64,000 nt of DNA, taken from the NCBI RefSeq assembly GCF_001294575.1, contig NZ_CP012676.1, forward strand, positions 3,610,001-3,674,000. Reading direction: 5' to 3'. Position numbers and translations under genes: made by a program. The DNA comes from Pseudomonas versuta (GTDB lineage: Bacteria > Pseudomonadota > Gammaproteobacteria > Pseudomonadales > Pseudomonadaceae). The notes beneath the pieces were generated by a model that did no database searches, was not told the origin of the DNA, and was given only the letters and a program-made list of their open reading frames with translations. Positions 37,538 through 52,568 of this stretch are shown here, piece by piece; position 1 is the stretch's first letter; each line of letters starts with the position of its first letter.

Positions 37538-40500
37538 CTAACCGCCGGGGTACAGCTCCCCTTCAACCATCCTCGCCACCACGCCGTGCAAGCGTTTAAG
37601 CAATGCCTTGATCGCCACAGCTGACTCAGGGTTCAAGGACTCACGCAGCAAGGCGATTTCACACTCATTGCATGCCACCGCCAGGTTGACCGCGCAGACC
37701 GTGGCAAATGAACCATTCATTCGATGCACATAACTGACCAGCTTCGATGTATCGCCTTGCTGCAGCGCCAACCCAGCCTGGGCCAGGTCCTCCTGCATGG
37801 TGCTGATAAACAGGCGATGCATGGCCGGCGAAAGCGTAATCCAGCCTTCAAGGTCGTCTGTGTGTTCAGCCCTGGCGGCGGATTCCAGCCCGGACGCAGG
37901 GGCCTGCGTTGCCTGCGGGCAATAAGCACACAAGGTCTGGCGCAAGGTGCTCAGGCTCAAGGGTTTGACCAGCCACGCATTCATCCCGACTTCCAGACAG
38001 TGCTCACCCTCCTCACGCATGGCATTGGCGGTCACACCGATAATCGGTACAGCCGGATCAAGCTCACGCAAGTGCCGGGTCAACTGATAACCATCGAGCC
38101 TGGGCATGTTCACATCGGTAATCACCAGATCGAACGAGCCCTCGCTCCAGCGCAACAAGGCTTGCTCGCCATCCTCTGCCAATGTCACTCGAACACCCAG
38201 AGCCTCAAGCTGTTCCTTGAGGATCTCGCGGTTGACCGGATTGTCCTCGGCCACCAACACCTTCAACTCCAGACTTGCCTGCGGCTGCGGCACATTGGCA
38301 CTCAGCTGCGGTGCAGTTCCCTGCGCCACCTGCATCAAGGTTCGGGCAATCGCCCGGATGTCATACGCATTGACCTCCCATCCCCGAGCTGTCCTTTGCG
38401 CCTGGCTGCGGCCCGACTCAGTCGCAATGACGCGCTCACCCGGGCCTTGCTGCGATTGCCCGGAACCCGCAACGATGTCCAGCAGGATCGCATCCCGGTC
38501 TTCAACTTCCGAGACCGGCAATAGCTGCGCCCGCGCCCCCCAGGTGCTCAACCAGTCAACCAGGCTCTGGCCGATATCCTTGAGCGGCGCACGGACATGG
38601 ATATTCAGATTGCGCAGATCGATGTCTGCACTGTTGACCAGCGCGCCGGCAATCACGGGCAGAGACATTTGTAATGAGAAGCTGCTGCCAAGCCCCGGCT
38701 CACTGACCACCCGCAAATTGGCGCCCATCATTTCACTCAACCGCGAGCAAATGGACAAACCCAGCCCTGCCCCGCCTGCCCGCTCGCTGCCACCGACCTG
38801 GGAAAAAGTCTTGAACAGACGGGTCAGTTGCTGCTCGCTGATTCCGATACCGGTATCAGACACTTGCCACTGCAGCGACACATGGTCCGGTTCAATGCCG
38901 ATCACTTTGAGCCTGAGAACAACCCGGCCTGAATCGGTGAACTTGATCGCGTTACTCAGCAAGTTATTAATGATTTGCCGGATGCGCACTGCATCCCCGC
39001 ATACCAGTGGCGGCAAGTTCGCGTCCGCACAGGCAAACAGCTTCAACCCTTTATTGCTCGCTGCCGCCGAGTAACTGCGTACGCAATCTTCAAATAAATC
39101 CAGAGGGCAAAAGGGTTGGGCTTGCACCGCCATTTGCCCGGACTCGATCTTGGAGACGTCCAGTACATCGCTGATCAACTGAAACAGCACAGCGGATGAA
39201 CGCTGAATGGTTTTCAGGTACTCGTGCTGGCGCTCATTCAGGGGCGTGAGTTCCAGCAACTCAAGATTGCCCAGCACCCCGTACAGAGGGGTACGGATTT
39301 CATGGCTCATGGTGGCCAGAAACAGGGTCTTGGCCTTGCTGGCTTCATCGGCAGCGAGCCTTGCCTGCTCCATCAGGTTGGCGTCATCCACATGCCGGGT
39401 GATGTCGTTGAAACCGCACAGCACCACGTTTTTGCCCTTGTAACGAGTGGATGCAATACAGGCCTGAAGGTAGCGCCCTGCCACTTCAATCTGCACTTCA
39501 CTCAGCTCGCGCTCAGCGTAATCACGCTTCAATAATGCGATCAGCTCTGGCGTGCCCTGCCACTGCTGAGCCCGCTGGTTCTCCAGCAATATGACCCCGG
39601 TTGCGCGCTCTACCACGCACAGACCAACGGGAGCGCTATCGAGCATGACCCTATTGAACTCTTCACTTTCAGCCAGGGACTGGCTGGAGCGCTGAGCAGG
39701 CTCGATGATCCGCACCCGATACCAGCGGTTGACGCGCCAGCCAATCAGGACGAAGAACACAAACAAGCCGGCCGCGCCCATCAAGGGCCATTTCGCATAG
39801 CCAAAGAAGTTCTGATACGTGATGGCGTACAGACCGATCCAGGGGTCGGCCCCGCCCGAAGTCAATTTGAAGCGCAGACCGTCTCGGGTAAAACTCAGCC
39901 CCGGCGCCAGCTCCTCGACATCCTGAACGTCGCCCAACAGCACGTCGCCAGCAGGGGAAATGAGGGTCAGGCGACTGTTGGTGGGGCGCATCAACAAGCG
40001 TTCAAGGTCACTCACATCGCTGACATCGAGCAGGGCGCTGAGAATCACCGAGCTCCCCTCATTAGCCGCCTGCATAAAGCGATCGGGAAGATCGACATTG
40101 ATAGCGCCCACTATGTATTTGCGCTTTTGAATGAGCTCGAGCGGAGCTTTCATCCACAACACTTGATCACTGCTGAGCACATGACGCCGGGGCAAAAACG
40201 CGTCGTACAAACGCTTGGTCACATCAAAGAAATTGTTCTTGAGCAACAGCGGGTACTGGCGGGTGCCATCAATACCGGGGACGGCAATGGAGAATTGGGC
40301 GGTGGGTGAAAAAACAAACACTTGCGGTGCCGGATAATAAGAGTCGGACCAGTAAGCCGTGAACAGATCGGTCAACTGCACGCCAAACGAATAGACGCCC
40401 TGCATTTCATCCAGGCTGAACTTGTCGCGCTGACTGACGGTAAACGGCAGTGATTTGGCCGTGTCCCGGTTTTGAAATAAAACTTCATCGCCCTGACGCA

Positions 40501-40786
40501 TCAACTCAATGTGCGAGCGCGGCTTGTTGTCCATCGAAAAGTTGCCACTGGCGTGGTCATAACCCTCAGCACCAACGCGTAAAAAGTCTTCGTGCTCATG
40601 AATACTTTCAATCAATCGTGCGAAGTGAAATTCCGTCTTTTCGCGCTCCTCCATCAACAAACGGTTAACTGCCCAATAACTCATGCTCACCAACAACAGG
40701 GCAAGTCCGGTCAGCAGGAGCAACAGCTTGTTCAATCGCAGAGAACTCAGTGCCAGTGCACCGAGACGTACCTTTGCTTGCTTCAT
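37538..40786 (-). CDS. Unorthodox hybrid sensor kinase with HPt (Roc/BvgS type)
   Basis: A 1082-residue inner-membrane kinase. TM1 at about 20-40 and TM2 at about 334-350 flank a periplasmic sensor of about 290 residues that looks Cache-like, not the SBP_bac_3 type of RocS1 or BvgS. Then come a PAS domain (375-465), the dimerisation domain with His495 in ATMSHEIRTP, and an ATPase domain (N box 607-616, DTGIGIS, GGAGLGLSI). Next is a degenerate receiver (about 725-815), followed by a true receiver with Asp891 and a C-terminal HPt with His1021 in YVHRMNGSF. This gives a His-Asp-His relay to a response regulator. It is divergent from the fimbrial operon, with the probable partner regulators at its far end. 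Confidence 0.88.
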   Translation of the reverse strand: MKQAKVRLGALALSSLRLNKLLLLLTGLALLLVSMSYWAVNRLLMEEREKTEFHFARLIESIHEHEDFLRVGAEGYDHASGNFSMDNKPRSHIELMRQGDEVLFQNRDTAKSLPFTVSQRDKFSLDEMQGVYSFGVQLTDLFTAYWSDSYYPAPQVFVFSPTAQFSIAVPGIDGTRQYPLLLKNNFFDVTKRLYDAFLPRRHVLSSDQVLWMKAPLELIQKRKYIVGAINVDLPDRFMQAANEGSSVILSALLDVSDVSDLERLLMRPTNSRLTLISPAGDVLLGDVQDVEELAPGLSFTRDGLRFKLTSGGADPWIGLYAITYQNFFGYAKWPLMGAAGLFVFFVLIGWRVNRWYRVRIIEPAQRSSQSLAESEEFNRVMLDSAPVGLCVVERATGVILLENQRAQQWQGTPELIALLKRDYAERELSEVQIEVAGRYLQACIASTRYKGKNVVLCGFNDITRHVDDANLMEQARLAADEASKAKTLFLATMSHEIRTPLYGVLGNLELLELTPLNERQHEYLKTIQRSSAVLFQLISDVLDVSKIESGQMAVQAQPFCPLDLFEDCVRSYSAAASNKGLKLFACADANLPPLVCGDAVRIRQIINNLLSNAIKFTDSGRVVLRLKVIGIEPDHVSLQWQVSDTGIGISEQQLTRLFKTFSQVGGSERAGGAGLGLSICSRLSEMMGANLRVVSEPGLGSSFSLQMSLPVIAGALVNSADIDLRNLNIHVRAPLKDIGQSLVDWLSTWGARAQLLPVSEVEDRDAILLDIVAGSGQSQQGPGERVIATESGRSQAQRTARGWEVNAYDIRAIARTLMQVAQGTAPQLSANVPQPQASLELKVLVAEDNPVNREILKEQLEALGVRVTLAEDGEQALLRWSEGSFDLVITDVNMPRLDGYQLTRHLRELDPAVPIIGVTANAMREEGEHCLEVGMNAWLVKPLSLSTLRQTLCAYCPQATQAPASGLESAARAEHTDDLEGWITLSPAMHRLFISTMQEDLAQAGLALQQGDTSKLVSYVHRMNGSFATVCAVNLAVACNECEIALLRESLNPESAVAIKALLKRLHGVVARMVEGELYPGG

Positions 40787-40930
40787 TATTCAGCGCCGTC
40801 ATTTAGCTGGGTGGAGCCTGGCAAGCCCACTACCTGCCAAGGTATCTACGCACTTTTAAAGCTCTTTGCGCCCCTGGATCAATCTTGAAGCGACGAACAA
40901 GAATCGTCTGATGGGGTTCCTCCACGTTCA

Positions 40931-40947
40931 GTTGCATCCTGTGCAAC
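40931..40947. promoter_or_regulatory. Dyad upstream of the fimbrial operon
   Basis: GTTGCA-N5-TGCAAC, a perfect dyad of 17 bp. It is 79 bases before the pilin ATG and 35 bases before a -10-like TAAAAT (40982-40987). No good -35 is present, as expected of an activated promoter. Candidate site for one of the LuxR-type regulators. Confidence 0.5.
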
Positions 40948-41025
40948 ACCTGCTGCGGCAAGCCGTTAACAGGCGGACACTTAAAATGAATATCACACTT
41001 CATCTGTTTGTAAAGGACGTCTCTC

Positions 41026-41583
41026 ATGTTTCAAAAAATAGGCAAATACACGGCACTTTGTGGTTCTTCGATGCTGATCGTCATGGCAGCGGCGACTGCT
41101 CAAGCGGCTGATGGCCAGGTTGAATTCACTGGTGTCATCAACGACAACCCATGCACCATCAACAGCGAAAGCGTAAAGAAATCCGTTGATATGGGCCAGG
41201 TTCGTATCGCTGACTTCGCCAGCACTGTTGGCTCAACAGCCGGTTCCACTCCGTTCTCCATCTCTCTGGAGAACTGCAGCGGTCCGACCCTGAAAAACGC
41301 CTCCATCAAGTTCAGCGGCCAACAAGCCGTTACTGATGCAACCGTACTGGGCATGACCGGTGAAAACCAGATCACTGGCGTCGGCATTCAGATCAACGAT
41401 GCACGCACCGGCTCCAAACTGGCACTGAACACCGCCAGCTCTGATTACGTACTGCGCCCTCAAGGCAACACCTTCGATTTCACCGCGTCCTATGTACGTC
41501 TGGCTGCAGACACTGACGAAGTGAGCGGTATCGGCACCGGTAAAGTTAACGCCCTGGCCAGCTTCGACGTTACTTACAAGTAA
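41026..41583 (+). CDS. Major fimbrial subunit (CupA1/B1/C1-like)
   Basis: A 185-residue chaperone-usher pilin. A signal peptide (cleavage after ...TAQAA) is followed by an N-terminal donor strand (GQVEFTGVINDNPC). Two cysteines, in NPCTI and ENCSG, are spaced for the pilin disulfide. The C-terminus LASFDVTYK carries the penultimate Tyr of the chaperone-recognition beta-zipper. It is first in the operon and therefore the likely shaft subunit, and it has a GGACG-type ribosome site. A 73-base spacer to the chaperone gene may lower expression of the later genes. Confidence 0.92.
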   Translation: MFQKIGKYTALCGSSMLIVMAAATAQAADGQVEFTGVINDNPCTINSESVKKSVDMGQVRIADFASTVGSTAGSTPFSISLENCSGPTLKNASIKFSGQQAVTDATVLGMTGENQITGVGIQINDARTGSKLALNTASSDYVLRPQGNTFDFTASYVRLAADTDEVSGIGTGKVNALASFDVTYK

Positions 41584-41656
41584 CCAGTGTTTCTAAACGA
41601 AAGAGCTCGTGTTTTAGCGCGAGCTCATTCGTTACGTTAAACAGAGGACACCCTTC

Positions 41657-42355
41657 ATGCGTTTTAAAATTGCAGCCTTTTTGACACTGGCAGCAGTCTT
41701 TTGGCTGCCCCAGATTCAAGCGGGCGTCAATGTAGGCTCTACGCGGGTTATTTATCAAAGCAAGGACAAGGAAGCCAACCTTTCACTCTCAAACTCCGGT
41801 GACGACGGCGTACCGTATCTGGTGCAATCCTGGGTCAGCACGTTTGACAAACCGGATGAGAGCGCAGATGAATTCATCATCACCCCGCCACTGTTTCGCC
41901 TGGATGCCAATAGCCAGAACATTTTGCGGGTCATTGCGACCAACGCGCAAAACTTGCCCACCGATAAAGAAAGCCTGTTTTTCCTCAACGTAAAAGCCAT
42001 CCCGGCCCTGAGTGAAGAACAACGTAATCAAAACGTGCTGCAAATTGCACTCAAGACCACAATTAAACTCTTCTATCGCCCTGCCGACCTGAAAGGCACG
42101 CTGGTGCAAGCCGTTGATGGACTTCAATGGCGTGTGGAGGGCGGTAACTTAAGTGTGCATAACCCGTCGGGCTATAACGTTGTTGTCAGTGAACTGCTGA
42201 TTAATAACAGCGCCAGCAAGGACATGCCTGAAGTTATCAAGCCCGGTACTACCGTCACGACCAAAATACCGCTGAAAAACAGCGACGCCCTCGAGTTCAG
42301 TTACATCAATGAGTACGGCAGCACCGTTAAAGCAACACCTGTTATAGCTCGCTGA
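41657..42355 (+). CDS. Periplasmic fimbrial chaperone
   Basis: A 232-residue PapD-type chaperone with signal peptide (to ...IQAGV). The N-terminal Ig domain begins VNVGSTRVIYQSKDKEANLSLSN, with the pilin-anchoring Arg in STRVIY. FLNVKAIPALSEE is the FGS/FGL loop region, and IKLFYRP carries the conserved Lys. It folds pilins and delivers them to the usher downstream. The domain-2 segment LSVHNPSGYNVVVSEL is typical. Confidence 0.94.
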   Translation: MRFKIAAFLTLAAVFWLPQIQAGVNVGSTRVIYQSKDKEANLSLSNSGDDGVPYLVQSWVSTFDKPDESADEFIITPPLFRLDANSQNILRVIATNAQNLPTDKESLFFLNVKAIPALSEEQRNQNVLQIALKTTIKLFYRPADLKGTLVQAVDGLQWRVEGGNLSVHNPSGYNVVVSELLINNSASKDMPEVIKPGTTVTTKIPLKNSDALEFSYINEYGSTVKATPVIAR

Positions 42356-42390
42356 ATACTGAACTACACGCCGACTGGAAGAACTATCTC

Positions 42391-45021
42391 ATGCTGCGAT
42401 TGCGCATGTGCGCCTTCGCGCGCCGAATAAACTACTGGGGCCTTCTGTCCCTCAGTGCGATCAGTCTCACCACGACTGCCGTTCGTGCGGACTACAGCTT
42501 CGATTCTTCCTTTCTGGAAATTGGTGGCGGTCACAGTTCGGCCGAAGTAGCCGAGCAAGTAAAAGCCATGAGCCAAAGCCAACTTCCGGGTATTTATCGT
42601 GTCGACCTGTCACTGAGCAATCGTTATGTCGAACAGCGCGACTTGCAGTTCGTGCGCGAAACGCCGAGCCAGACATCGACACCTTCAGGTTTGTTTCCCT
42701 GCTTCAGCCTTCAGGCCCTGACTGATTTCGGCGTTGATCCCGAGCGCCTGAAAAACACTGAGGTCAGTGCTGACAATTGTGTGTACTTCCAGGGCGACCT
42801 GACCGGTATCACCTATGACTACGACTTCAATAAACAGCATCTTGACCTGCAAGTGCCTCAGGCTTATATCGGCAGCATTCCATTCGAAACCCGCCGTAAA
42901 AGCTGGAGCGATGGCGAGCAAGTCGCTTTTGCCAACTATAACTTTTCGGGCAGCAACTACGAGAACCAGTCCGGTAATCGTCAGTCCCAGTTCGGCAGTG
43001 TGCACAGCGGTTTCAATAGCGGGGCCTGGCGCTTTCGCAACTTCTCGACCTGGCAGAAGAGCACCAACGTCGATGGCAACTGGAAGTCCGTGGACACCTA
43101 TGTCCAGCGGGACCTGGGCAACCTGATGGCGATTGCCACTGTCGGTGAAAGCTCAACCGACAGCGATCTGTTTGACACGATTTCCTACCGTGGTGTGGGC
43201 ATTGCTTCTGACCTGGACATGCTGCCGGATGACTCGCGCAACTTCGCGCCTGTAGTTCGTGGCGTGGCCAATGGCCGCTCGCTGGTGACGTTGCGCCAGC
43301 GCGGCTATGTGATCAGCGAACAGTGGGTGCCGTCCGGCCCGTTTGCGCTCAAGGATCTGTACTCGACCTCTGGCAACGGTGATATCGAAGTCACGGTTGA
43401 AGGTCCCAATGGCGAACGCCAGGTATATATCCAGTCGTTCTCGTCCGTACCCTACATGTTGCGTGAAGGCCAGCAAAGTTACGCCGTGACCGCAGGCCAG
43501 TATCGCCCTGCAGACGGTGCCTTGAACCCGCAAAAACCGGGCTTTGTACAAGGCACCTATCGCCGGGGCCTGACTGACGGTACCACGCTGTTCGGTGGCA
43601 CCATCGTCAGTGAGCAGTACCACTCCGTACTTGCGGGCTTTGCCCATGACTTTTCGGGTTTCGGCGCCATTTCGCTGGACGTGACCCATGCCATCAGCGA
43701 CGACATGGGCCCGGACTCCAAAACCCTCTCGGGTCAGTCCTACCGTTTTCGTTATTCCAAGTCGATCGACCTGACAGACACCAGTTTCAGCCTGATTGGC
43801 TACCGCTACTCCACCAGCGGTTATTACAGCTTTAACGAAGCGATCAATGCGCGTGCCAATAACTCGCTCGAACCCTATGTGGACGAAACGCTGACTGAAA
43901 GTGCGATGTATACCCCGTACTTGAGCGGTCATATGAAAAGCAGCTTTACCGCCAACGTATCGCAGCAATTCGGCTCCTACGGCGGTATGTACGCCAACCT
44001 GACCAAAACCGATTACTGGAACCTGGCCAAGAGCAATACCTCGGTGCAACTGGGTTATAGCTTCAGTGTTGGTCGCGCGTCCTACAACGTGGGGGTGGCG
44101 CAGAACAGTGGCGTCGGTGATGACATTCGCAGCGTATCGTTGAGCGTGAGTATTCCCCTGGGCGATCCGGGCAGCAGCAGCCGTCTGGGCCTGAGCAACA
44201 GTCAGGATTCGGGCGGTAATGCCAGCCGCAACGCCACCTTCAGCGGCTCGTATTTCCCGAACGACACCCTGTCTTACAACCTGGGCATCAATCAGCAAGT
44301 CAGTGACGACGAGCGCTTGCTCGGCGGTTCGGTTGCCGCCCGTTACAACGCGGCCAATGCCATCTGGCACGGGTCTTACAACAAGGACCAGAACACCCGC
44401 CAGACGGACTATGGCGTGGAAGGTGCGATCGTCGCCACCCGTGACACCCTGATGTTCACCCAGCCTTTGGGCGAGACCAACATCATCGTGGCCACGCCCG
44501 GTGCCGGGGACGTCGGTGTGCTGACCAAAAGCGGGGTCAAAACCAACAGCAGCGGTTACACGATTATTTCTTCTGCCCAGCCCTACCGCAAAAACAAGGT
44601 AGCGCTCGATACCGACTCGTTATCGGACAACACCGACGTCGAGCAACTGGTGCAGGAAGTGACCCCCAATCGTGGCGCCTTTGTACTGGCCAACTTCGAG
44701 ACCCGTAACGGTCGCCGTCTGTTGATCAGCCTCAGTTCCAAAGATGGCAAGCCGGCACCCTTTGCTGCCGAGGCTCAGGTGTATGGACTGGACGGCACCT
44801 TATTGAGCAACGCCATGGTGGCGGACAAGGGTCGGGTATTTCTGACCGGCGTACCCGAAAAGTCGCGACTGGTGATCAATGTCAGCGGCCGGCAGTGGTG
44901 CGCCACAGATCTTGACCTGAACAATTACACGCTGTCAGAAACGGGCATCGGGCAACTGCAGATCAGTTGCGATACCCCATCGGCCGCACATGCAGACACT
45001 CAAGGTACTCCCGATGCATAA
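42391..45021 (+). CDS. Fimbrial outer-membrane usher
   Basis: An 876-residue FimD/PapC-type usher: signal peptide, N-terminal chaperone-binding domain (FDSSFLEIGG...), 24-strand barrel with plug, and C-terminal domains. Visible are SGFNSGAWRFRNFSTWQ, FAPVVRGVANGRSLVTLRQRGYVI in the plug and barrel start, and the near-C-terminal FETRNGRRLLISL...AEAQV. Plug cysteines are few; the terminal WCATDLD...QLQISC gives the usual Cys pair. It secretes and assembles pilins. Its end overlaps the adhesin start by 8 bases. Confidence 0.95.
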   Translation: MLRLRMCAFARRINYWGLLSLSAISLTTTAVRADYSFDSSFLEIGGGHSSAEVAEQVKAMSQSQLPGIYRVDLSLSNRYVEQRDLQFVRETPSQTSTPSGLFPCFSLQALTDFGVDPERLKNTEVSADNCVYFQGDLTGITYDYDFNKQHLDLQVPQAYIGSIPFETRRKSWSDGEQVAFANYNFSGSNYENQSGNRQSQFGSVHSGFNSGAWRFRNFSTWQKSTNVDGNWKSVDTYVQRDLGNLMAIATVGESSTDSDLFDTISYRGVGIASDLDMLPDDSRNFAPVVRGVANGRSLVTLRQRGYVISEQWVPSGPFALKDLYSTSGNGDIEVTVEGPNGERQVYIQSFSSVPYMLREGQQSYAVTAGQYRPADGALNPQKPGFVQGTYRRGLTDGTTLFGGTIVSEQYHSVLAGFAHDFSGFGAISLDVTHAISDDMGPDSKTLSGQSYRFRYSKSIDLTDTSFSLIGYRYSTSGYYSFNEAINARANNSLEPYVDETLTESAMYTPYLSGHMKSSFTANVSQQFGSYGGMYANLTKTDYWNLAKSNTSVQLGYSFSVGRASYNVGVAQNSGVGDDIRSVSLSVSIPLGDPGSSSRLGLSNSQDSGGNASRNATFSGSYFPNDTLSYNLGINQQVSDDERLLGGSVAARYNAANAIWHGSYNKDQNTRQTDYGVEGAIVATRDTLMFTQPLGETNIIVATPGAGDVGVLTKSGVKTNSSGYTIISSAQPYRKNKVALDTDSLSDNTDVEQLVQEVTPNRGAFVLANFETRNGRRLLISLSSKDGKPAPFAAEAQVYGLDGTLLSNAMVADKGRVFLTGVPEKSRLVINVSGRQWCATDLDLNNYTLSETGIGQLQISCDTPSAAHADTQGTPDA

Positions 45022-45961
45022 CTCAACAAACCTGCTGCCCGGCTCGCGCTGGGTGAAACGCGGCTTGCTGCTGCTTGGCTTGCTGTTCGGCCTTGGTTGC
45101 CAACAGGCCTTTGCACTGATTCAGAACAACCTGGCGTGTACCCCAGCAGGAACCTACGGAGTAGTTGATCTTGGCGATCTGGCACCTGGGGAATATTTTG
45201 AAGTAAGAATGCTAGGCAATTGCCGAGTGACACGGAATTTCCCCTATGGCTCGTCGTTGCAGCAAACCCAAGTCCTGACCCAAGCGCCAGGGCCAGCTTT
45301 GTCGATGATTGCGACGGCTGTAACTGGAGAGGTGGTTCCGGAACAGCCCTGGGGTGTCGCGTCATCCGTTTGCCTGCCAACCGACGGCAGCGGATGTATA
45401 CCGCGGCCCGTTGGTACCTATAACGTCTACAACGTGATGTTTTCTATGCCCAAGGGTAGAGGCCCGACAACGCCAGGCAATTATACGGTAACCCTAAACC
45501 TGACTAGCACCTCTATCAGAGGCTATGAAGGTTATGTCGATATCATTCAAACCCTGACGTTGAAATATCGGATTGTAAATCCGGCCTGCTCCATGAGTTC
45601 GGGCACGGCCCTGAACCTCCCATTCGGCACCCTGAACAGCAATGACTTTGCGACCTCGCAGCAACTGGCCAATGTCACGTTGAACTGCACCCGCGGCACC
45701 CAGGCAACCGCCACGCTGGTGCCCACGCAAAGTGCTGTGAGTGGCAGCCCCGGGGTTTCGGCGACCACCCTGGCCGGCCTGTCGATGGCCGCCACCTGGG
45801 CCGATAACAACTCTGCCGTGACCTTCAACAGTCCGCGCACGCTAAACCTGACTACAGGCGCCAATACCATTCGCCTGGGTTTCCGGCCGCGTCTGAATAC
45901 CAGCGTTTCACCCACTGGAAGTTTCACCAGCCAATACACCCTCAACATCAACTACCTCTGA
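45014..45961 (+). CDS. Two-domain fimbrial tip adhesin
   Basis: A 315-residue protein with a signal peptide (RGLLLLGLLFGLGCQQAFA). An N-terminal domain of about 170 residues has three cysteine positions (NNLACTPAG, GNCRV, SSVC...GCI). A C-terminal pilin-like domain (NPACSMSSGTALNLPFGTLNSNDF ... LNINYL) ends in the penultimate Tyr motif. Pilin domain at the C-terminus with no donor strand at the start is the layout of a tip adhesin. The receptor is unknown. The ATG at 45014 is translationally coupled to the usher stop; an earlier in-frame start is less likely. Confidence 0.82.
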   Translation: MHNSTNLLPGSRWVKRGLLLLGLLFGLGCQQAFALIQNNLACTPAGTYGVVDLGDLAPGEYFEVRMLGNCRVTRNFPYGSSLQQTQVLTQAPGPALSMIATAVTGEVVPEQPWGVASSVCLPTDGSGCIPRPVGTYNVYNVMFSMPKGRGPTTPGNYTVTLNLTSTSIRGYEGYVDIIQTLTLKYRIVNPACSMSSGTALNLPFGTLNSNDFATSQQLANVTLNCTRGTQATATLVPTQSAVSGSPGVSATTLAGLSMAATWADNNSAVTFNSPRTLNLTTGANTIRLGFRPRLNTSVSPTGSFTSQYTLNINYL

Positions 45962-45980
45962 ATGACCACAGGAACCGATC

Positions 45981-46469
45981 ATGAACTTGCGCTTATCAAT
46001 GGCTGCAGCCCTTCTCACTGGTCTGGCGTGCACCTCTGCGTATGCAGACGACACCGTCACCATCAACGTCAGTGGCACCCTGACAAAAGCGCCCTGTTCC
46101 CTGACCAGCAGCAAAACCTTGACCGCCAACTTTGGCAGCATTCGCACCGACCAGATAAGCAGCGCCAGCAGTGTCGATATCCCGGTCACTCTGAACTGCC
46201 CGGCCAACTCGGCACTGAACGTCAGCATCAAGGCTTCGGGCGTCTATTCAGGCTCCACCACTTATGCGACTACCAGCAAGACCAACCTTGTGTATATGTT
46301 GTCGTGGAAAAGTGACAACTCCGTGGCCAATGTCACCGGGACGAAACGCAACCTGACCAATCAAAGCGGCACCGTAAACCTTGGCTTGACCGCCAAGCTG
46401 ATTGCTATCGCCGCACAGACCGAGGGTAGCTTCACCGGTTCTTCGGTCATTACCCTCGAGTACCTGTGA
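45981..46469 (+). CDS. Minor fimbrial subunit
   Basis: A 162-residue pilin-like protein with a signal peptide (to ...SAYAD), the N-terminal donor strand TVTINVSGTLTKAPC, one disulfide pair (APCSL, LNCPA), and an IT-L-E-Y-L end. It is 19 bases after the adhesin gene. Probably an adapter or terminator subunit; the exact place in the fibre is inference. Confidence 0.85.
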   Translation: MNLRLSMAAALLTGLACTSAYADDTVTINVSGTLTKAPCSLTSSKTLTANFGSIRTDQISSASSVDIPVTLNCPANSALNVSIKASGVYSGSTTYATTSKTNLVYMLSWKSDNSVANVTGTKRNLTNQSGTVNLGLTAKLIAIAAQTEGSFTGSSVITLEYL

Positions 46470-46470
46470 G

Positions 46471-46995
46471 ATGTTCATGCAGGCCAGAGTCAGCCTGATT
46501 GCAGCACTGCTTGCGAGCGTAACGCTGTGCTGCGGCACAGCGTATGGCGACGAGGAGGCCAGCCGGCTCGATATTACCGGCACCCTGATAAAACCGCCGT
46601 GCACGGCCAGTTTCCCGACGTCGCAGAGTGTGGATATCCCCAAGGCGAGCCTGAGTGTGTTGAGCGCAGACAGTTCTGAATGGACTGATGTGGACTTGAA
46701 CTTTCAATGCCTCAAAGGCAGCCAAGTGCTGCTGCGCTTTAACGCGGGCAATGGTTCATTTGACAGCAACACGCTGCGCACCACCCTCGACAGAGTGGGC
46801 CTCAAAACCCGCCTGAGTGACATGAGCAGCAGCGGCAAAGCGGTGGATTTGACCCTGGGTGAACAACAAACCTTCACTGTTGAAGACACACTATTAAAGC
46901 TCAAGCTCTCGGTGCGGCCAGTCAGGATCGGCGATCAAATGCCCGCAGTCGGCAGCTACAGCTCAACGCTGCTGATGGAAATGATCTACCAGTAA
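46471..46995 (+). CDS. Minor fimbrial subunit
   Basis: A 174-residue pilin-like protein: signal peptide ending ...GTAYGD, donor-strand-like LDITGTLIKPPC, cysteines in KPPCT and FQCLKG, and the end LLMEMIYQ with penultimate Tyr. The start could be 46471 or 46477. It is one base after the previous gene. Last gene of the operon; its stop faces the LuxR-type regulator gene, only 10 bases away and convergent. Confidence 0.83.
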   Translation: MFMQARVSLIAALLASVTLCCGTAYGDEEASRLDITGTLIKPPCTASFPTSQSVDIPKASLSVLSADSSEWTDVDLNFQCLKGSQVLLRFNAGNGSFDSNTLRTTLDRVGLKTRLSDMSSSGKAVDLTLGEQQTFTVEDTLLKLKLSVRPVRIGDQMPAVGSYSSTLLMEMIYQ

Positions 46996-47005
46996 ACCCG
47001 GCCGA

Positions 47006-47650
47006 TCAGGTGAACAGATTGGCTTTGAGGCACAGGATCAGCAACGCCTGATCATTGTCGACATCAAGCTTGCGCATTGCCGAAATCTTCAGGGTGCTGA
47101 TCGTTTTAATACTGCGGTTCAGGCTTTGCGCAATTTCCCCGACCGCCATGCCAGAAGCAAACAGTCGCAGGACTTCAAATTCCTTGACGGTTAATTGGCT
47201 GAGACTTTTCGCAACATCATCCAGCGCGTCACTCGACGTTTCGTCAGGCATGTCTTGCTGGTAATGCCCCTCACGATAGAACGCATCCAGTGCGACCAGA
47301 ATCTGCTCCAGCCCCGAGCTCTTGGATATGACCCCGCTGATGCCCAATTCATACAGCCAGGTCAAAACCTGCGGATTGGAAATTACTGTCAGAACTATGA
47401 TCCGCGGCTCGGGAAAATGCCGGCGCAGGTATTCCACCAGACGCGAGCCATCGCCGTAATGCTCGTCACCCGGCATGTTGTAGTCCGTGATAATCACGTC
47501 CGGACGCAGTAGTGAAATCTTTTCGATTAATTCGGAAGGACTCAGCGCTTCGCCCACCACTTTGAAACGCGGGTCGCGCTCGATGATTTCACGCACCCCC
47601 ATCAACACAATCGGGTGATCGTCGGCCAATAAGACTTTCATTTGCGGCAT
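47006..47650 (-). CDS. LuxR-type response regulator A (RocA/RcsB-like)
   Basis: A 214-residue NarL-family regulator. The receiver has the acid pair DD near the start, the phospho-acceptor Asp in VIITDYNMPG and a Lys in ISKS. The LuxR HTH is LTVKEFEVLRLFASGMAVGEIAQSLNRSIKTISTLKISAMRKL. It is a paralogue of the regulator at 47754, with strong matches in both domains. It is probably phosphorylated by the HPt of the kinase at 37538 and likely acts on the neighbouring fimbrial promoter; both are inference from family and position. Confidence 0.88.
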   Translation of the reverse strand: MPQMKVLLADDHPIVLMGVREIIERDPRFKVVGEALSPSELIEKISLLRPDVIITDYNMPGDEHYGDGSRLVEYLRRHFPEPRIIVLTVISNPQVLTWLYELGISGVISKSSGLEQILVALDAFYREGHYQQDMPDETSSDALDDVAKSLSQLTVKEFEVLRLFASGMAVGEIAQSLNRSIKTISTLKISAMRKLDVDNDQALLILCLKANLFT

Positions 47651-47753
47651 GGCTTACATAACTCCAACATTCTGTGTAGTCGCTGACCTGCTATGGGACT
47701 GTGATCTGTCAGGTTCTTTCGTCGCCATTCGCAGCCTCGTGCCTGGGCAACGA

Positions 47754-48404
47754 CTACAAGTTCCAGGGGTCAGCCTTGATGCAGTAAGTGAGTAAAGCAT
47801 GGTCATTTAGCACTTCCAGCTTATGCATCGCAGATACTTTATGGGTGCTGACTGTTTTGACGCTTCGATTTAACTGACGGGCGATGTCACCCACACTATT
47901 GCCGGCCACAAATAGCCGCAACACTTCAACTTCGCGGGGTGACAGTGTGGAAAAACGCTCATCAATGACCTTGGGGTTGCTGATCACCGACGTGGCCGGA
48001 GCCGCCGGCCCGGCATAGGGCCGACCATGGGCCAGGGCATTCAGTGCTTTACCTATTTCCTGGTAGATATGATTTTTGGCAATCACACCCGCCACGCCCA
48101 TTTCCAGCAAGCGAGAAATAATCAGCGGATTACTCTCCATGGTCAGCACCAGGATTTTCACCCCCGCAAAATGTTCAATCAGGTACTCGATCAGTTGCAG
48201 CCCATCACCATAGGTCTCATCACCGGGCATGTTGAAATCGGTAATCAACAAGGCTGGTTGATGCACTACCAACTGCTCCACCAGTTGCGACGAATTCAGG
48301 GCTTCGCCGACAAGATTGAAACACTTGTCCCGTTGAATCACTTCCCGAAGCCCCACCAGGACCACCGGGTGATCGTCGGCAATCACAACCTTTAACTCGC
48401 GCAT
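47754..48404 (-). CDS. LuxR-type response regulator B (RocA/RcsB-like)
   Basis: A 216-residue paralogue of the previous gene, 103 bases upstream of it on the same strand. The receiver Asp lies in LLITDFNMPG, and the HTH is LSPREVEVLRLFVAGNSVGDIARQLNRSVKTVSTHKVSAMHKL. The recognition helices of the pair differ mainly by T-L-K versus T-H-K. Two such regulators in tandem suggest separate targets or antagonism. It is cut off from the EAL gene upstream by a REP pair, so it may have its own promoter. Confidence 0.88.
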   Translation of the reverse strand: MRELKVVIADDHPVVLVGLREVIQRDKCFNLVGEALNSSQLVEQLVVHQPALLITDFNMPGDETYGDGLQLIEYLIEHFAGVKILVLTMESNPLIISRLLEMGVAGVIAKNHIYQEIGKALNALAHGRPYAGPAAPATSVISNPKVIDERFSTLSPREVEVLRLFVAGNSVGDIARQLNRSVKTVSTHKVSAMHKLEVLNDHALLTYCIKADPWNL

Positions 48405-48450
48405 TGCCTGACTCCATATTGATGACGCAACTAAAGCGGGAATGCCCCTG

Positions 48451-48522
48451 CAGGAGCGAGCTTGCTCGCGAGCTGTTGATTACAACCTGAATCAAAGGCT
48501 CGAGAGCAAGCTCGCTCTTACA
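48451..48522. repeat. REP pair between regulator B and EAL gene
   Basis: A forward copy (48451-48474, starting CAGGAGCGAGC) and an inverted copy (about 48496-48522) with several changes (GGCTCGAGAGC, CTCTTACAG). Degenerated relative to the perfect pair at 57090. Confidence 0.8.
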
Positions 48523-48528
48523 GGGGGG

Positions 48529-49725
48529 CTAGTTCCTGGATGGCTTGGAGCTGTCTTCAAGCAGCAGGGTTTCGAAATCCGTGCATGAGACGGCGCCGCA
48601 GATCAAAAATCCCTGGGCCTGATCACACTCAATGCTACGCAAGAATGCAAGTTCTGCCTGTGTCTCGACCCCTTCAGCAACGACCGTCAGGCCCAGCTTT
48701 CGGCTCAGCTCCACGAGACTGCGCAGGGCCGACGCCAGATTTTCATTTTCAACACAGCCATGCACCAGCGAACGGTCGATCTTGAGTTCGCTGAAGGGGG
48801 TTGAGACCAGGTTGAAATAGGAACTGAAACCCTTGCCGAAGTCATCCTGAGCCAGGCCAAAACCCATCATGCGCAAGCGGCAGGCGCCAGCATAGTAGTT
48901 ACTGAGTTCCTCTGTGGTTGAGCTTTCCATCAGCTCAAACACGATGCTGCGCGGCTCACCGCCATCAGCCATCACATAATCGCGCAAGCGGTCGGCCAGA
49001 TCGTGGTTGTCCAGCAAGTGGGTCGGCAAATTGATTGAGACCGGGATATCCCAGCCCTGCTCGCGCCACTTTCTTTGTGCCTGCAGCGTTTGCTCCAGCA
49101 TCAGCCACAGCAGTCGCTCCTCCAGCCCCTGGTTGATCAAGAGCGACAGAAAATCCTTGGGCAATAACAACCCGACCTCGGGGTGAGCCCAACGGACCAG
49201 CGCTTCAGCACTGAGAATATTGCCGTTGCGCAGAGACTTCTTGGGCTGAAACCACGCCTGGATCTGGCCGTTGCCCATGGCCATTTCGATACTTTGCGGA
49301 TCGACCTCTATACCCTGTGCAGGGTGCATGTCACCGTTGAGCCGGAAGATCGCCATGCGCTCTTTCAAACGCATGACGGCATTGATTTCCACCGGTTTGG
49401 AAATCAGGCCGACCACTGTAATACCCAGGTTTTTCGCCGCCAGGCCCGCACTGATCAACATTCGCCGTGACGAGGCACTCATCAGCGCCAGCGCCGGTGT
49501 TTTTTTCAGGGCCGCAATCTTCTGGATCAATTGCACGCCATCCATGCCCGGCATCAGCAAATCGCTGAGCAGCAGGTCATAGTCATTACGGGCCAGGCAT
49601 TGCAAGGCACCCGCACCGTCCCAAACGGTGTCAACTGTAAAGCCCCCCACTTCGCTGAATACATTCAGTAAATACTCATGCTGAAAGGGATGATCCTCGA
49701 CGACCAGTACACGATAGGGCTTCAC
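48529..49725 (-). CDS. RocR-like REC-EAL c-di-GMP phosphodiesterase
   Basis: A 398-residue response regulator with receiver (Asp55 in LLLSDLLMPG) and EAL domain. The GTG start at 49725 is set by an AAAGGAGG site six bases upstream; the longer open frame to 49818 overlaps the kinase. Catalytic residues are present: Glu174 of EAL, Asn232, Glu264, Asp294-Asp295 in DDFGKGFSSY, Lys315 and Glu351 in VAEGVE. Each is exactly one less than the RocR numbering I remember. It should cleave c-di-GMP and lower fimbrial output. It begins 11 bases after the kinase at 49737, so the two are co-translated. Confidence 0.9.
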   Translation of the reverse strand: MKPYRVLVVEDHPFQHEYLLNVFSEVGGFTVDTVWDGAGALQCLARNDYDLLLSDLLMPGMDGVQLIQKIAALKKTPALALMSASSRRMLISAGLAAKNLGITVVGLISKPVEINAVMRLKERMAIFRLNGDMHPAQGIEVDPQSIEMAMGNGQIQAWFQPKKSLRNGNILSAEALVRWAHPEVGLLLPKDFLSLLINQGLEERLLWLMLEQTLQAQRKWREQGWDIPVSINLPTHLLDNHDLADRLRDYVMADGGEPRSIVFELMESSTTEELSNYYAGACRLRMMGFGLAQDDFGKGFSSYFNLVSTPFSELKIDRSLVHGCVENENLASALRSLVELSRKLGLTVVAEGVETQAELAFLRSIECDQAQGFLICGAVSCTDFETLLLEDSSKPSRN

Positions 49726-49736
49726 TGGATCCTCCT

Positions 49737-52505
49737 TTAAAAGTGCTGAAGACAGTTGTATAGGGTGTGCAGCGTAAAAGGCTTGATCAGACAGTGATTC
49801 ATCCCGGCGCTCAGGCAACGCTCGGAGTCGTCGGGCATGGCCTTGGCCGTTGCCCCGATGATTGGCTCAGTGATATTCATGGCCCGTAACCTGGCGGCCA
49901 GCTCATAACCGTTCATTCTTGGCATGTTGACGTCGGTCAAAATCAGATCGAATGTCCCTTGCTGCCAGAGCTCGAGAGCCTCCAGACCATCACTGGCCAA
50001 TGTCACTGTGCAGCCCAGCTCCTGGAGCTGGTCACGCAAAATCAGCTGATTGATGACGTTGTCTTCGGCAACCAGGATTCGTAATCCAAGGTTGAGCTCA
50101 GCCCTGGCGGCTGCCGTTTTTAAATGACTGTCTGTGCGCATCCCCTGTGCCTCGCACAGGGCACGGTATACGTCCTGCAAGCTATTGAGGTCGGCGTGCC
50201 AGCAAGGATTTCCAGTCGAGAGCGGCTGCGAACTGTCGCTCGCGGCCACCACCAGCGGCCCCGTCCAATCGGGCTCCAGCAATTGCCGGGCAGAGCCCGG
50301 GTGCAGCTCCAGCAACACCGCATCGTCAAGGGCATCGCCCTGCTTGGGGACTCCCAGATGAGCCCGCGCCCCCCAGCGCCGTAACCAGGCGCAGTAACAT
50401 TCAGCCAGCTCGCGCAGGGGCGAAACCACATAAACAACACTGGAAGACAATTCGCCCAAGGGGCTCAGGCGCGAGGGGGCCTTGACCTGTACCAAGGGCA
50501 AATGCAGGGTAAAACTGCTGCCCAGGCCCGGCTCGCTGACCAACCGCATGGTGCCGTTCATCAAGTGCATGAGGCGCTTGCAAATGGATAGCCCCAGCCC
50601 CGTACCCGCGACCACGTGCTGGGCAGACTCCACTTGATAAAAGGGCTCGAACAAGTGGGCCTGTTCTTCATGGGCGATCCCTTTACCGGTATCCGAGACC
50701 TGCCAGTGCAACATGACCCGTTCATCATCGCGGCTGTCCATTTTCAGGCGCAGCACGACTTTTCCGTAGTCGGTGAATTTCAGAGCGTTGTTGAGCAGGT
50801 TGTTGAGGATCTGGCGGATACGGGTGACATCCCCGCTGAGCCACTCGGGCACCGTCGAATCAATCAGGGCAAACAGCTGCAGGCCCTTGGCCTGGGCAGC
50901 ACCGTTGTATCCCTGAATAACCTCCTCGATCAATTCCATCGGGCTGAAGGTGGTGAGCTCAAGCTGCAGTTGGCCCGCCTCAATGCGCGACACATCCAGT
51001 ACGTCGCAAATCAGTTGCAACAGATTGCCGGAAGAGCGCTCGATGGCTTTTAAATAGTTGTTTTGCTGATCGTTGAGATCGGTGCGCGCCAGCAATTCAA
51101 GGGTGCCTAAAACACCATACAAAGGCGTACGGATTTCATGGCTCATGGTCGCCAGAAACAAGGTCTTGGCCTCATTGGCCCGATCCGCCAGCTGTCGGGC
51201 ACGCTCCAGCGTCACTTCTATCTGTTTGCGCGCACTTATGTCGCTGAACGCACAAATCAGCACGTCTTCACTTTTGTAACGGGTCGGAGCAAACGCGAGG
51301 TTAAGAAGACGACCATCTTCCATCTCAATTTCATCGCTGTTGCTCAGGTCGGGCTCTTCAAAAGCGCGATGAATCCAGCCATGGCACAACTTGCCACGCT
51401 CACTGCTACTGCCTAACCACTGTTGCGACAGCGAGTTTTCCAGTACCACCGTGCCGTCCGTGCGGCGAATGACGCACAAGGCGACCGGCGCGACCTGCAA
51501 TGCAGCTCGACTGAAGGCTTCACTTTCAACCAGCGCCTGGATCCGGTTTTCGCCCGGAGTAATCAGGCGCCGGTCGATGCGCACGATCAAAAAGCGCAGC
51601 CCGATGCAGACGGCAATAAACAGCAGAACACAAGCCGCCAAAGGCCAGCCCAATACTGGCAGCAACGATTTAATGTCCACGGCATAGACGATTTGCCAGC
51701 CTGAATAACCCAGTTTTTTGCGGATCGCCAGGCTGTCGGCGAACCACCCTGAACCAATAAAGCCAAACGAATTTTTGGCTTCCAGGGCGTGCAATGAATC
51801 CACCAGGGTGGACTGCGCAGCATTGGTGAAAATGATCTGCCCCTGCGCGTCCAGCAACATGAAATCGCCAGCGCTGTCACTGCGTAATGCCTCGATAAGG
51901 TCCGGCACTTCAACTTCAATGCCCAACCAGCCGGAAGACAGATTGCGGCTATCAAGGCGTGCGAATAAATAGAACGGGGAGTCCAGTACTTTGTTGTCGG
52001 TCAGCCAGAGGTCATCATCAAAGGAATACGCCCTGTCGCCCTCCTCGGCCAAACGTTGCAACACCACCCGGGGCAAGGATTCCACGCCGGGGGACGCGTC
52101 AAACAGACGTACCACCTCGGGTTGATCGGTTGGCGGGACGTACAGCAGATTGACTTTGCTCTCGTGCAGATAGTCCATCATTCGTCGGGTAAGCCACAGG
52201 CTCCAATGGCCCGCATCGCTGCCCAGACTGATTTTGATCTCTTCTTGCGGATCGACACTGCCAGGCGTTTGAGACTGTGCGATGTCAGGCACCGTTGCCA
52301 GGACCAGACTTTTGAGCAGGGTCTGGCGGCTGACGAAAAAATCCTGAGCGTTGAACACCGCCTCGTTCATGATGCTGCGGCGCTGGGACACTTCTTCGTT
52401 AAAGACTGCCCGCAGGTATACGAACGAGCTCGCGAAAACCGCAACTAAGAGGCCGCAGGCAAAAAGATGGAGAAGTTGTCGGGCGGCTTGGGGAGTGGAT
52501 TTCAT
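49737..52505 (-). CDS. Hybrid sensor kinase without HPt
   Basis: A 922-residue kinase related to the one at 37538. TM1 is at about 10-30 and TM2 at about 284-305, with a periplasmic Cache-like sensor between them. A PAS domain follows (about 325-425), then His456 in ATMSHEIRTP, the ATPase domain (NNLLNNALKF, DTGKGIA, GTGLGLSI), a degenerate receiver and a final receiver with Asp858 in LILTDVNMPRMNGY. It stops after this receiver and has no HPt domain. To reach a regulator it would need the HPt of another protein. The start is uncertain: 52505 (MKSTPQAARQLL) or 24 bases earlier. It leads the operon with the RocR-like gene. Confidence 0.87.
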   Translation of the reverse strand: MKSTPQAARQLLHLFACGLLVAVFASSFVYLRAVFNEEVSQRRSIMNEAVFNAQDFFVSRQTLLKSLVLATVPDIAQSQTPGSVDPQEEIKISLGSDAGHWSLWLTRRMMDYLHESKVNLLYVPPTDQPEVVRLFDASPGVESLPRVVLQRLAEEGDRAYSFDDDLWLTDNKVLDSPFYLFARLDSRNLSSGWLGIEVEVPDLIEALRSDSAGDFMLLDAQGQIIFTNAAQSTLVDSLHALEAKNSFGFIGSGWFADSLAIRKKLGYSGWQIVYAVDIKSLLPVLGWPLAACVLLFIAVCIGLRFLIVRIDRRLITPGENRIQALVESEAFSRAALQVAPVALCVIRRTDGTVVLENSLSQQWLGSSSERGKLCHGWIHRAFEEPDLSNSDEIEMEDGRLLNLAFAPTRYKSEDVLICAFSDISARKQIEVTLERARQLADRANEAKTLFLATMSHEIRTPLYGVLGTLELLARTDLNDQQNNYLKAIERSSGNLLQLICDVLDVSRIEAGQLQLELTTFSPMELIEEVIQGYNGAAQAKGLQLFALIDSTVPEWLSGDVTRIRQILNNLLNNALKFTDYGKVVLRLKMDSRDDERVMLHWQVSDTGKGIAHEEQAHLFEPFYQVESAQHVVAGTGLGLSICKRLMHLMNGTMRLVSEPGLGSSFTLHLPLVQVKAPSRLSPLGELSSSVVYVVSPLRELAECYCAWLRRWGARAHLGVPKQGDALDDAVLLELHPGSARQLLEPDWTGPLVVAASDSSQPLSTGNPCWHADLNSLQDVYRALCEAQGMRTDSHLKTAAARAELNLGLRILVAEDNVINQLILRDQLQELGCTVTLASDGLEALELWQQGTFDLILTDVNMPRMNGYELAARLRAMNITEPIIGATAKAMPDDSERCLSAGMNHCLIKPFTLHTLYNCLQHF

Positions 52506-52568
52506 GCCCCAAGCCTGAGGCCGGGGCATGACAAAAATAATCAGACAATTCCTGAAAGCACTCCCCCC

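What the first reader, a model, noticed from the sequence alone, without database searches (positions are those of the whole stretch)
37538..52505. Fimbrial operon enclosed by its own two-kinase, two-regulator, c-di-GMP-degrading circuit
A chaperone-usher operon of six genes is bounded by two hybrid kinases, two LuxR-type regulators and a RocR-like REC-EAL enzyme. P. aeruginosa has similar parts in the roc loci (acting on distant cup genes) and in rcsCB/pvrSR beside cupD. Here the sensors are Cache-like, not SBP-like, and the order is different. It looks like a self-contained adhesion switch combining phosphorelay and local c-di-GMP control.
Basis: partly seen in the sequence, partly recalled or inferred. 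Interest (0 to 1): 0.75.

Follow-up and report, generated by a model that had tools for sequence, protein, structure and literature searches.

The report
Rearranged Rcs/Pvr switch for fimbriae
This is a rearranged version of a known Pseudomonas control module (Rcs/Pvr, known beside the CupD fimbriae) wrapped around a set of adhesive fimbriae, with one control gene moved and an extra regulator of different ancestry added; it matters mainly as a natural variant for learning how such switches are rewired.

Summary
The genes are as described: a six-gene chaperone-usher operon between two histidine kinases, two LuxR-type regulators and a REC-EAL enzyme. It is not a new circuit. The EAL protein passes NCBI's equivalog model for PvrR (676.9 bits, cut-off 580). 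One kinase is RcsC-like (with Hpt), the other PvrS-like (no Hpt), and one regulator (LuxR2) is the lineage's RcsB; all have counterparts beside cupD-like genes in a genome of PA7's length. The pvrS-pvrR-rcsC-rcsB set recurs in Pseudomonas next to different fimbrial operons.

What differs: rcsC has moved to the far side of the fimbrial operon, divergent from the pilin gene; a second RcsB-class regulator (LuxR1) is present that is not a recent copy of LuxR2 (p-AU 0.0024). Both changes occur together in one clade.

An RcsB-type box lies before the pilin gene and before pvrS, the only two intergenic matches to its pattern in the 5.15-Mb genome. In the PA7-length genome it lies within one base of where PA14's cupD1 promoter needs GAA. 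In LuxR1-bearing loci its left half has shifted from TAAG to CAGG at both promoters. Function is inferred; nothing was assayed.

The parts
37538..40786 (-). rcsC-like unorthodox histidine kinase (dCache-like sensor, HisKA H495, HATPase, REC D891, Hpt H1021), 1082 aa; relocated upstream of, and divergent from, the pilin gene
   Evidence: Pfam; motifs; PA14 RcsC is 1084 aa with H502/T506/H1029 (PMC2696094, PMC3842833); sensor fold; tree
40787..41025 (.). 239-bp divergent intergenic region shared by rcsC and the fimbrial operon
   Evidence: aligned in the window and 13 rearranged loci
40898..40915 (+). RcsB-type box CAAGAATCGTCTGATGGG, starting 128 bp before the pilin ATG
   Evidence: genome-wide pattern search; half-site table
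40932..40946 (+). second, partly conserved element TTGCATCCTGTGCAA 16 bp behind the box; role unknown
   Evidence: single match to TTGCATNNNRTGCAA in own genome (control 1)
41026..41583 (+). major fimbrial subunit (PF00419)
41657..42355 (+). periplasmic chaperone (PapD_N, PapD_C)
42391..45021 (+). outer-membrane usher
   Evidence: one of two ushers in the genome
44990..45961 (+). two-domain subunit, probable tip adhesin; highest dN/dS of the locus (0.27-0.29)
   Evidence: Pfam (21.9 bits, cut-off 25.6); dN/dS; no PDB sequence relative
45981..46469 (+). minor fimbrial subunit
46402..46995 (+). minor fimbrial subunit; likely start ATG at 46471
47006..47650 (-). LuxR1: REC-HTH regulator of RcsB class, of different descent from LuxR2; recognition helix carries Leu187 where canonical RcsBs have Gln
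   Evidence: Pfam
47754..48404 (-). LuxR2: RcsB of this lineage's module
   Evidence: PDB RcsB E 6e-46; NCBIfam RcsB 183 bits (cut-off 235); trees
48529..49725 (-). PvrR: REC-EAL c-di-GMP phosphodiesterase (open frame reaches 49818; likely GTG start 49725)
   Evidence: NF052596 676.9 bits, cut-off 580; catalytic positions; start
49737..52505 (-). PvrS-like hybrid kinase (dCache sensor, HisKA, HATPase, REC; no Hpt); open frame reaches 52529
   Evidence: PA14 PvrS is 931 aa, H463, D862
52537..52554 (-). RcsB-type box CAGGAATTGTCTGATTAT before pvrS

Best explanation
The locus is a rearranged member of the Rcs/Pvr module that controls cup fimbriae. Proposed working: PvrS senses a periplasmic signal through its dCache domain and autophosphorylates; phosphate passes through the REC and Hpt of RcsC to the RcsB-type regulator LuxR2 (and probably LuxR1); phospho-RcsB binds the box before the pilin gene and the box before pvrS, so it turns on the fimbrial operon and its own control operon, which includes pvrR. 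PvrR degrades c-di-GMP and opposes attachment. RcsC is also the phosphatase that resets the system. In this clade rcsC has left the control operon and shares a 239-bp divergent region, with one box, with the pilin gene, which could tie the relay/phosphatase dose to pilin promoter activity. Shown here: gene identities, residues, boxes, gene-order history. Inferred from PA14 work: kinase, relay, phosphatase and phosphodiesterase roles and the direction of control. Inferred only: any feedback effect of the relocation and any role of LuxR1.
For: PvrR equivalog above cut-off (the PA7-length genome's PvrR 650.4 bits). Identity to the cupD-side proteins of that genome: RcsC 455/1052, PvrS 439/915, PvrR 219/398, RcsB 111/211 (LuxR1) and 103/215 (LuxR2). 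Hpt only in RcsC, as in PA14. RcsC and PvrS trees agree and place this clade next to canonical modules. Box found de novo before the pilin gene in the window and 13 of 13 rearranged loci given (of 17 held); before pvrS in 17 of 17 LuxR1+ loci and, as a unique hit, 81 of 84 LuxR1- loci (2 ambiguous, 1 none); these hold repeats, leaving 16 and 80 distinct. Absent before LuxR1, LuxR2 and PvrR, 0 of 17 each. In the PA7-length genome its GAA starts at -77 of cupD1; PA14 needs the GAA that starts at -78. RcsB overproduction raises pvrS, pvrR, rcsC and rcsB in PA14. Purifying selection on all signalling genes in two comparisons.
Against: No expression, binding or phosphotransfer data for this locus. 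The fimbriae are a different kind from CupD. NCBIfam RcsB and RcsC models are hit below their cut-offs. The consensus promoter scan found fewer sigma-70 sites than shuffles (2 against mean 7.0). In PA14 PvrR activity did not need its phospho-Asp and no partner was found, so PvrR may not be part of the relay. With the weight matrix rather than the blind search, 74 of 84 LuxR1- loci reach the threshold before pvrS.
Confidence: 0.87

Rival explanations
1. LuxR1 and LuxR2 work as a pair (heterodimer, RcsA-RcsB style): LuxR1 reads the altered left half-site CAGG, LuxR2 the unchanged right half GTCTGAT. The fimbriae are then on only when both are present.
For: Left half-site is T at position 1 in 81 of 81 uniquely placed LuxR1- pvrS boxes and 9 of 9 LuxR1- pilin boxes, C in 16 of 17 and 14 of 14 with LuxR1, in a search blind to positions 1-3; the right half is unchanged. 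LuxR1 recognition helix has Leu in 13 of 13 where canonical RcsBs have Gln in 25 of 25. LuxR1 is of other descent and conserved.
Against: One clade, hence one event. LuxR2 itself changed at the position that I align with E. coli base-contacting S184 (Ala in 23 of 25 canonical, Thr in 13 of 13 LuxR2), which could explain the shift alone; but PA7-length RcsB also has Thr there with a TAAG box. An E. coli RcsB half-site is TTAGGAA (PMC5829831), close to CAGGAA, so plain RcsB could read it. One relative (L093/L174) has a stop in LuxR1 with its fimbrial genes present, though it has one in rcsC too.
Confidence: 0.2
2. LuxR1 serves another, unlinked target and merely shares the relay; only LuxR2 drives the fimbriae.
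For: In L173 the fimbrial genes are remnants, the pilin box is gone and LuxR2 is split over two frames, while LuxR1, PvrR, PvrS and RcsC remain without internal stops.
Against: One locus only; LuxR1 sits with rcsC relocation in 9 of 9 genomes that have it, of 398 searched. No further intergenic match to the box pattern in the genome.
Confidence: 0.3
3. A Roc-type system (RocS/RocA/RocR).
For: RocR is the best-scoring solved structure for the EAL protein (E 2.7e-49); PMC2696094 notes the likeness of Rcs/Pvr to Roc.
Against: The PvrR equivalog model fits well above its cut-off; no RocR model is among the 25 of 95 families shown; a plasmid-borne gene annotated rocR in P. aeruginosa is only 31.5% identical; dCache, not SBP, sensors.
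Confidence: 0.03
4. A chance neighbourhood of unrelated signalling genes.
For: Shuffling of order across Pseudomonas shows that linkage is not rigid (L085, L193).
Against: The same four proteins recur side by side in 48 of 57, 66 of 80 and 16 of 25 regions (overlapping sets), with a shared box.
Confidence: 0.01

Closest known systems
rcsCB/pvrSR with cupD, P. aeruginosa PA14 PAPI-1 (PMC2696094, PMC3842833)
   Same: Same four signalling proteins by size, domains and key residues; fimbrial operon next door; box whose GAA, in a PA7-length genome, lies within one base of the essential PA14 cupD1 GAA; RcsC alone carries Hpt; sensors alignable over their length
   Different: rcsC on the other side of the fimbrial operon, divergent from the pilin gene; second RcsB-class regulator; different fimbrial operon (no second chaperone, two extra pilins); box left half CAGG/CAAG instead of TAAG; right-hand neighbour (Dyp peroxidase) shared by 16 of 17 LuxR1+ loci, which speaks for a fixed chromosomal place rather than an island
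Canonical pvrS-pvrR-rcsC-rcsB beside the same type of fimbrial operon (L105, L108, L110-L112, L115, L118, L119, L128, L140 among others)
   Same: Same fimbrial type (usher 52-61% identical) and same four regulators; box before pvrS, and before the pilin gene where tested
   Different: rcsC inside the control operon, no LuxR1, TAAG half-site before the pilin gene
Roc system (RocS1/RocA1/RocR), P. aeruginosa
   Same: Two-kinase logic with an EAL response regulator acting on cup genes
   Different: RocS1 has SBP-type sensors; targets cupB/cupC lie elsewhere; EAL enzyme passes the PvrR model here
Enterobacterial Rcs (RcsC/RcsD/RcsB/RcsA; recalled apart)
   Same: RcsB-class regulator and RcsAB-like box; possible partner regulator
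   Different: Hpt is inside RcsC; output is fimbriae; RcsD and RcsF were not searched for

Membership tests
Rcs/Pvr cup-control module | PvrR: REC-EAL of the PvrR family | tested here: met
   NF052596 676.9 bits, cut-off 580
Rcs/Pvr cup-control module | RcsC: unorthodox kinase with REC and Hpt, like size and phospho-sites | tested here: met
   PA14 values
Rcs/Pvr cup-control module | PvrS: hybrid kinase without Hpt | tested here: met
Rcs/Pvr cup-control module | RcsB: REC (Asp) plus LuxR-type HTH | tested here: met
   LuxR2 by tree and PDB match; LuxR1 is a further member of the class; NCBIfam RcsB model below cut-off for both
Rcs/Pvr cup-control module | Adjacent chaperone-usher operon with an RcsB-type box before the pilin gene | tested here: met
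Rcs/Pvr cup-control module | (usual, not defining) contiguous order pvrS-pvrR-rcsC-rcsB with the cup operon in the opposite orientation | tested here: not met
   rcsC relocated; the roles in PA14 are assigned to proteins, not to order
Rcs/Pvr cup-control module | PvrS kinase to RcsC Hpt to RcsB phosphotransfer; RcsC phosphatase; PvrR hydrolysis of c-di-GMP | not testable with these tools
   residues present only
CupD fimbriae (CupA-like, second chaperone) | pilin, chaperone, usher, adhesin, second chaperone | tested here: not met
   no second chaperone among the six genes; two extra pilins instead
Roc system | SBP-type periplasmic sensors (RocS1) | tested here: not met
   no SBP Pfam domain; dCache-like fold models
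Roc system | RocR as the EAL regulator | tested here: not met
   PvrR equivalog instead; 31.5% to an annotated rocR

The most novel reading that the evidence does not exclude
A fimbrial switch that took in a second RcsB-class regulator from another Pseudomonas lineage and now reads an asymmetric operator: LuxR1 on the shifted left half-site (CAGG), LuxR2 on the ancestral right half (GTCTGAT), at both promoters of the locus, while rcsC (relay and phosphatase) was moved under the same divergent control region as the pilin, so that commitment and reset are coupled. It would be an RcsA-RcsB-like AND gate that arose by recruitment of a foreign RcsB.
Probability: 0.18. Interest if true: 0.62.

Novelty: new variant of a known kind. 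Interest (0 to 1): 0.42.

Why it matters
It shows that the PA14 cupD regulators are not a peculiarity of a pathogenicity island: the module recurs in many Pseudomonas, beside different fimbriae and with a conserved box. The variant here gives a rewiring placed in one clade (one gene moved, one regulator gained, one half-site changed at two promoters) that can be tested in a non-clinical group. I saw no report of this arrangement in the listings of eight searches of the open-licence library; subscription papers are not covered.

Full report
WHAT IS THERE. The window lies at 3610001-3674000 of a 5.15-Mb single-contig genome; its relatives are Pseudomonas. Eleven genes fill 37538-52529. On the plus strand: pilin, chaperone, usher, a two-domain subunit (probable tip adhesin) and two minor pilins. 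On the minus strand: a kinase at the left (HisKA-HATPase-REC-Hpt), and at the right two REC-LuxR regulators (LuxR1 47006-47650, LuxR2 47754-48404), a REC-EAL protein and a second kinase (HisKA-HATPase-REC). The genome has one other usher.

IDENTITY OF THE SIGNALLING GENES. The REC-EAL protein scores 676.9 bits against NCBIfam's PvrR equivalog (cut-off 580). Its likely start is a GTG at 49725 behind AAAGGAGG, giving 398 residues; PA14 PvrR has 399 (PMC2696094, section 5 read). The EAL catalytic positions (residue set recalled, aligned to RocR) are invariant in the 14 aligned rows. The left kinase has 1082 residues with His495, REC Asp891 and Hpt His1021; the right one has His464 and Asp866 in the long frame. 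PA14 RcsC has 1084 residues and His502/His1029, PvrS 931 residues and His463/Asp862. LuxR2's best solved relative is RcsB (E 6e-46). Identities to it: RcsC 455/1052, PvrS 439/915, PvrR 219/398, RcsB 111/211 for LuxR1 and 103/215 for LuxR2.

HOW COMMON, AND IN WHAT ORDER. Of 57 regions taken around the best EAL matches in 199 genomes, own excepted, 48 have pvrS-pvrR-rcsC-rcsB in that order (one, L084, with partial pvrS and pvrR matches), 3 have the order of the window, 1 (L085) another order and 5 no such module. Of the 80 best named loci, 66 have the canonical order, 1 is cut by a contig end after rcsC, 12 have the window's order and 1 (P. fragi D12) has the EAL gene alone. Of 25 further regions, 16 are canonical, 5 are of the window's kind, 1 (L193) is a different permutation and 3 are incomplete. 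These sets overlap: five pairs in the last two have identical pvrS DNA, and the first set shares contigs with the others. LuxR1 (E <= 1e-80) is in 9 of 398 genomes, own included, and all 9 have rcsC on the far side of the (intact or, in L173, remnant) fimbrial operon. In many canonical loci the same regulators sit beside chaperone/usher genes that are only about 31% identical to these, so the control module has been paired with different fimbriae.

HISTORY. RcsC and PvrS trees agree: the rearranged loci form one clade (100/100 in both; 5 rows in the RcsC tree, 7 in the PvrS tree) nearest to canonical modules such as L101 and L103-L106. LuxR2 falls with the RcsBs of its own lineage. LuxR1 falls with a set of 18 RcsBs that holds all 5 taken from the PA7-like genus (g9) and proteins named from Zestomonas, Ectopseudomonas and P. 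schmalbachii (support 100/99), and a LuxR1+LuxR2 clade is rejected, p-AU 0.0024. So the simplest account is one event or a close series: rcsC moved, an RcsB of other descent arrived. All signalling genes are under purifying selection (dN/dS 0.03-0.19 in two comparisons); the adhesin-like gene evolves fastest (0.27-0.29).

THE BOX. Aligning the region before the pilin gene gave a conserved 18-mer, CARGAATCGTCTGATGGG with rare variants, in the window and 13 of 13 rearranged loci given (of 17 held), starting 128-131 bp before the ATG; 9 of 10 same-type loci without LuxR1 (8 canonical and L193) have TAAGA-type versions at about -100, and the tenth (L105) ends just before the pilin gene. A weight matrix trained on these finds only two sites scoring over 8 in the 64-kb window, on both strands: the training site and one before pvrS. 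The pattern ARGRATYGTCTKAT occurs three times in the whole genome, the third inside an open frame; the reversed control occurs 0 times. The box is present before pvrS in 17 of 17 LuxR1+ loci and, located without use of positions 1-3, uniquely in 81 of 84 others (2 ambiguous, 1 none); one of the 17 and four of the 84 are repeats of a contig. With the matrix at threshold 6 the count among the 84 is 74. It is absent before LuxR1, LuxR2 and PvrR (0 of 17 each), as expected if these follow pvrS in one operon. In the PA7-length genome the box before cupD1 has its GAA at -77 to -75; in PA14 the GAA at -78 to -76 is essential for the cupD1 promoter (PMC3842833, section 9 read). E. coli RcsB contacts G and A bases of such half-sites through K180 and S184 (PMC5829831, passages).

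HALF-SITE SHIFT. Position 1 is T in 81 of 81 LuxR1- pvrS boxes and 9 of 9 LuxR1- pilin boxes, but C in 16 of 17 and 14 of 14 where LuxR1 is present; position 3 is A in 79 of 81 and 9 of 9 against G in 17 of 17 and 13 of 14 (the one exception before a pilin gene is the window itself, CAAG). The right half does not move. LuxR1 carries Leu in 13 of 13 at a recognition-helix position that is Gln in 25 of 25 canonical RcsBs (10 Gln, 3 His in LuxR2). This fits a LuxR1-LuxR2 pair on an asymmetric operator. Against it: it is one clade; LuxR2 itself changed at the S184-like position (Thr in 13 of 13 against Ala in 23 of 25); E. coli RcsB has a TTAGGAA half-site; and one relative (L093/L174) has a stop in LuxR1 with its fimbrial genes present, though its rcsC has one too.

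MECHANISM. From PA14 (PMC3842833; abstract, introduction, first results section, sections 6, 7, 9 and part 1 of the discussion read): PvrS is the kinase, RcsC relays and dephosphorylates, RcsB activates cupD and raises pvrS/pvrR/rcsC/rcsB, and PvrR, which did not need its phospho-Asp, lowers cupD expression and is needed for dispersal. I carry this over to the present locus at 0.87. What the relocation of rcsC does is inferred only: rcsC and the pilin gene now diverge from a 239-bp region with a single box, and in L173, where the fimbrial operon is reduced to remnants, that box is gone while the pvrS box stays.

VERDICT. Real, well described, and a variant of a known module. The claim of novelty on sensor type does not hold; the relocation, the second RcsB of other descent and the half-site shift are what is new. 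I saw no report of this arrangement in the searches named under Why it matters; PMC12051241 (outline and passages seen) treats Roc across Pseudomonas and its main text holds no word beginning cupD, Rcs or Pvr.

Noticed in passing
window 37538-40786 and 49737-52529; protein P0007: rcsC and pvrS lie in the same orientation and share 64 of 78 bases (23 identical in a row) around the HisKA histidine. A public protein (P0007; 3 members, 1 contig) is a PvrS front half joined to an RcsC back half at that place: either recombination that would delete the fimbrial operon and the regulators between, or an assembly error.
   Followed up: partly
L173: Relative with the fimbrial operon reduced to remnants, LuxR2 split over two frames and the pilin box gone, but LuxR1, PvrR, PvrS, RcsC and the pvrS box kept.
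   Followed up: partly
L193: A second permutation: fimbrial operon upstream of and divergent from pvrS-pvrR-rcsB-rcsC.
   Followed up: no
L125, L127: P. fragi F1801 and P. psychrophila DSM 17535 carry, besides the rearranged locus, a second canonical pvrS-pvrR-rcsC-rcsB set with no chaperone-usher genes recognised within the stretch held.
   Followed up: no
L099: P. fragi D12 has a PvrR-like EAL gene (76% identical) without the other regulators in the stretch held.
   Followed up: no
window 40932-40946: Partly conserved TTGCATCC element 16 bp behind the box in LuxR1+ loci; the only match to TTGCATNNNRTGCAA in the genome; role unknown.
   Followed up: partly
L093 and L174 (same contig): In-frame stop codons in both LuxR1 and rcsC of one P. 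helleri strain, with the fimbrial genes matched.
   Followed up: no
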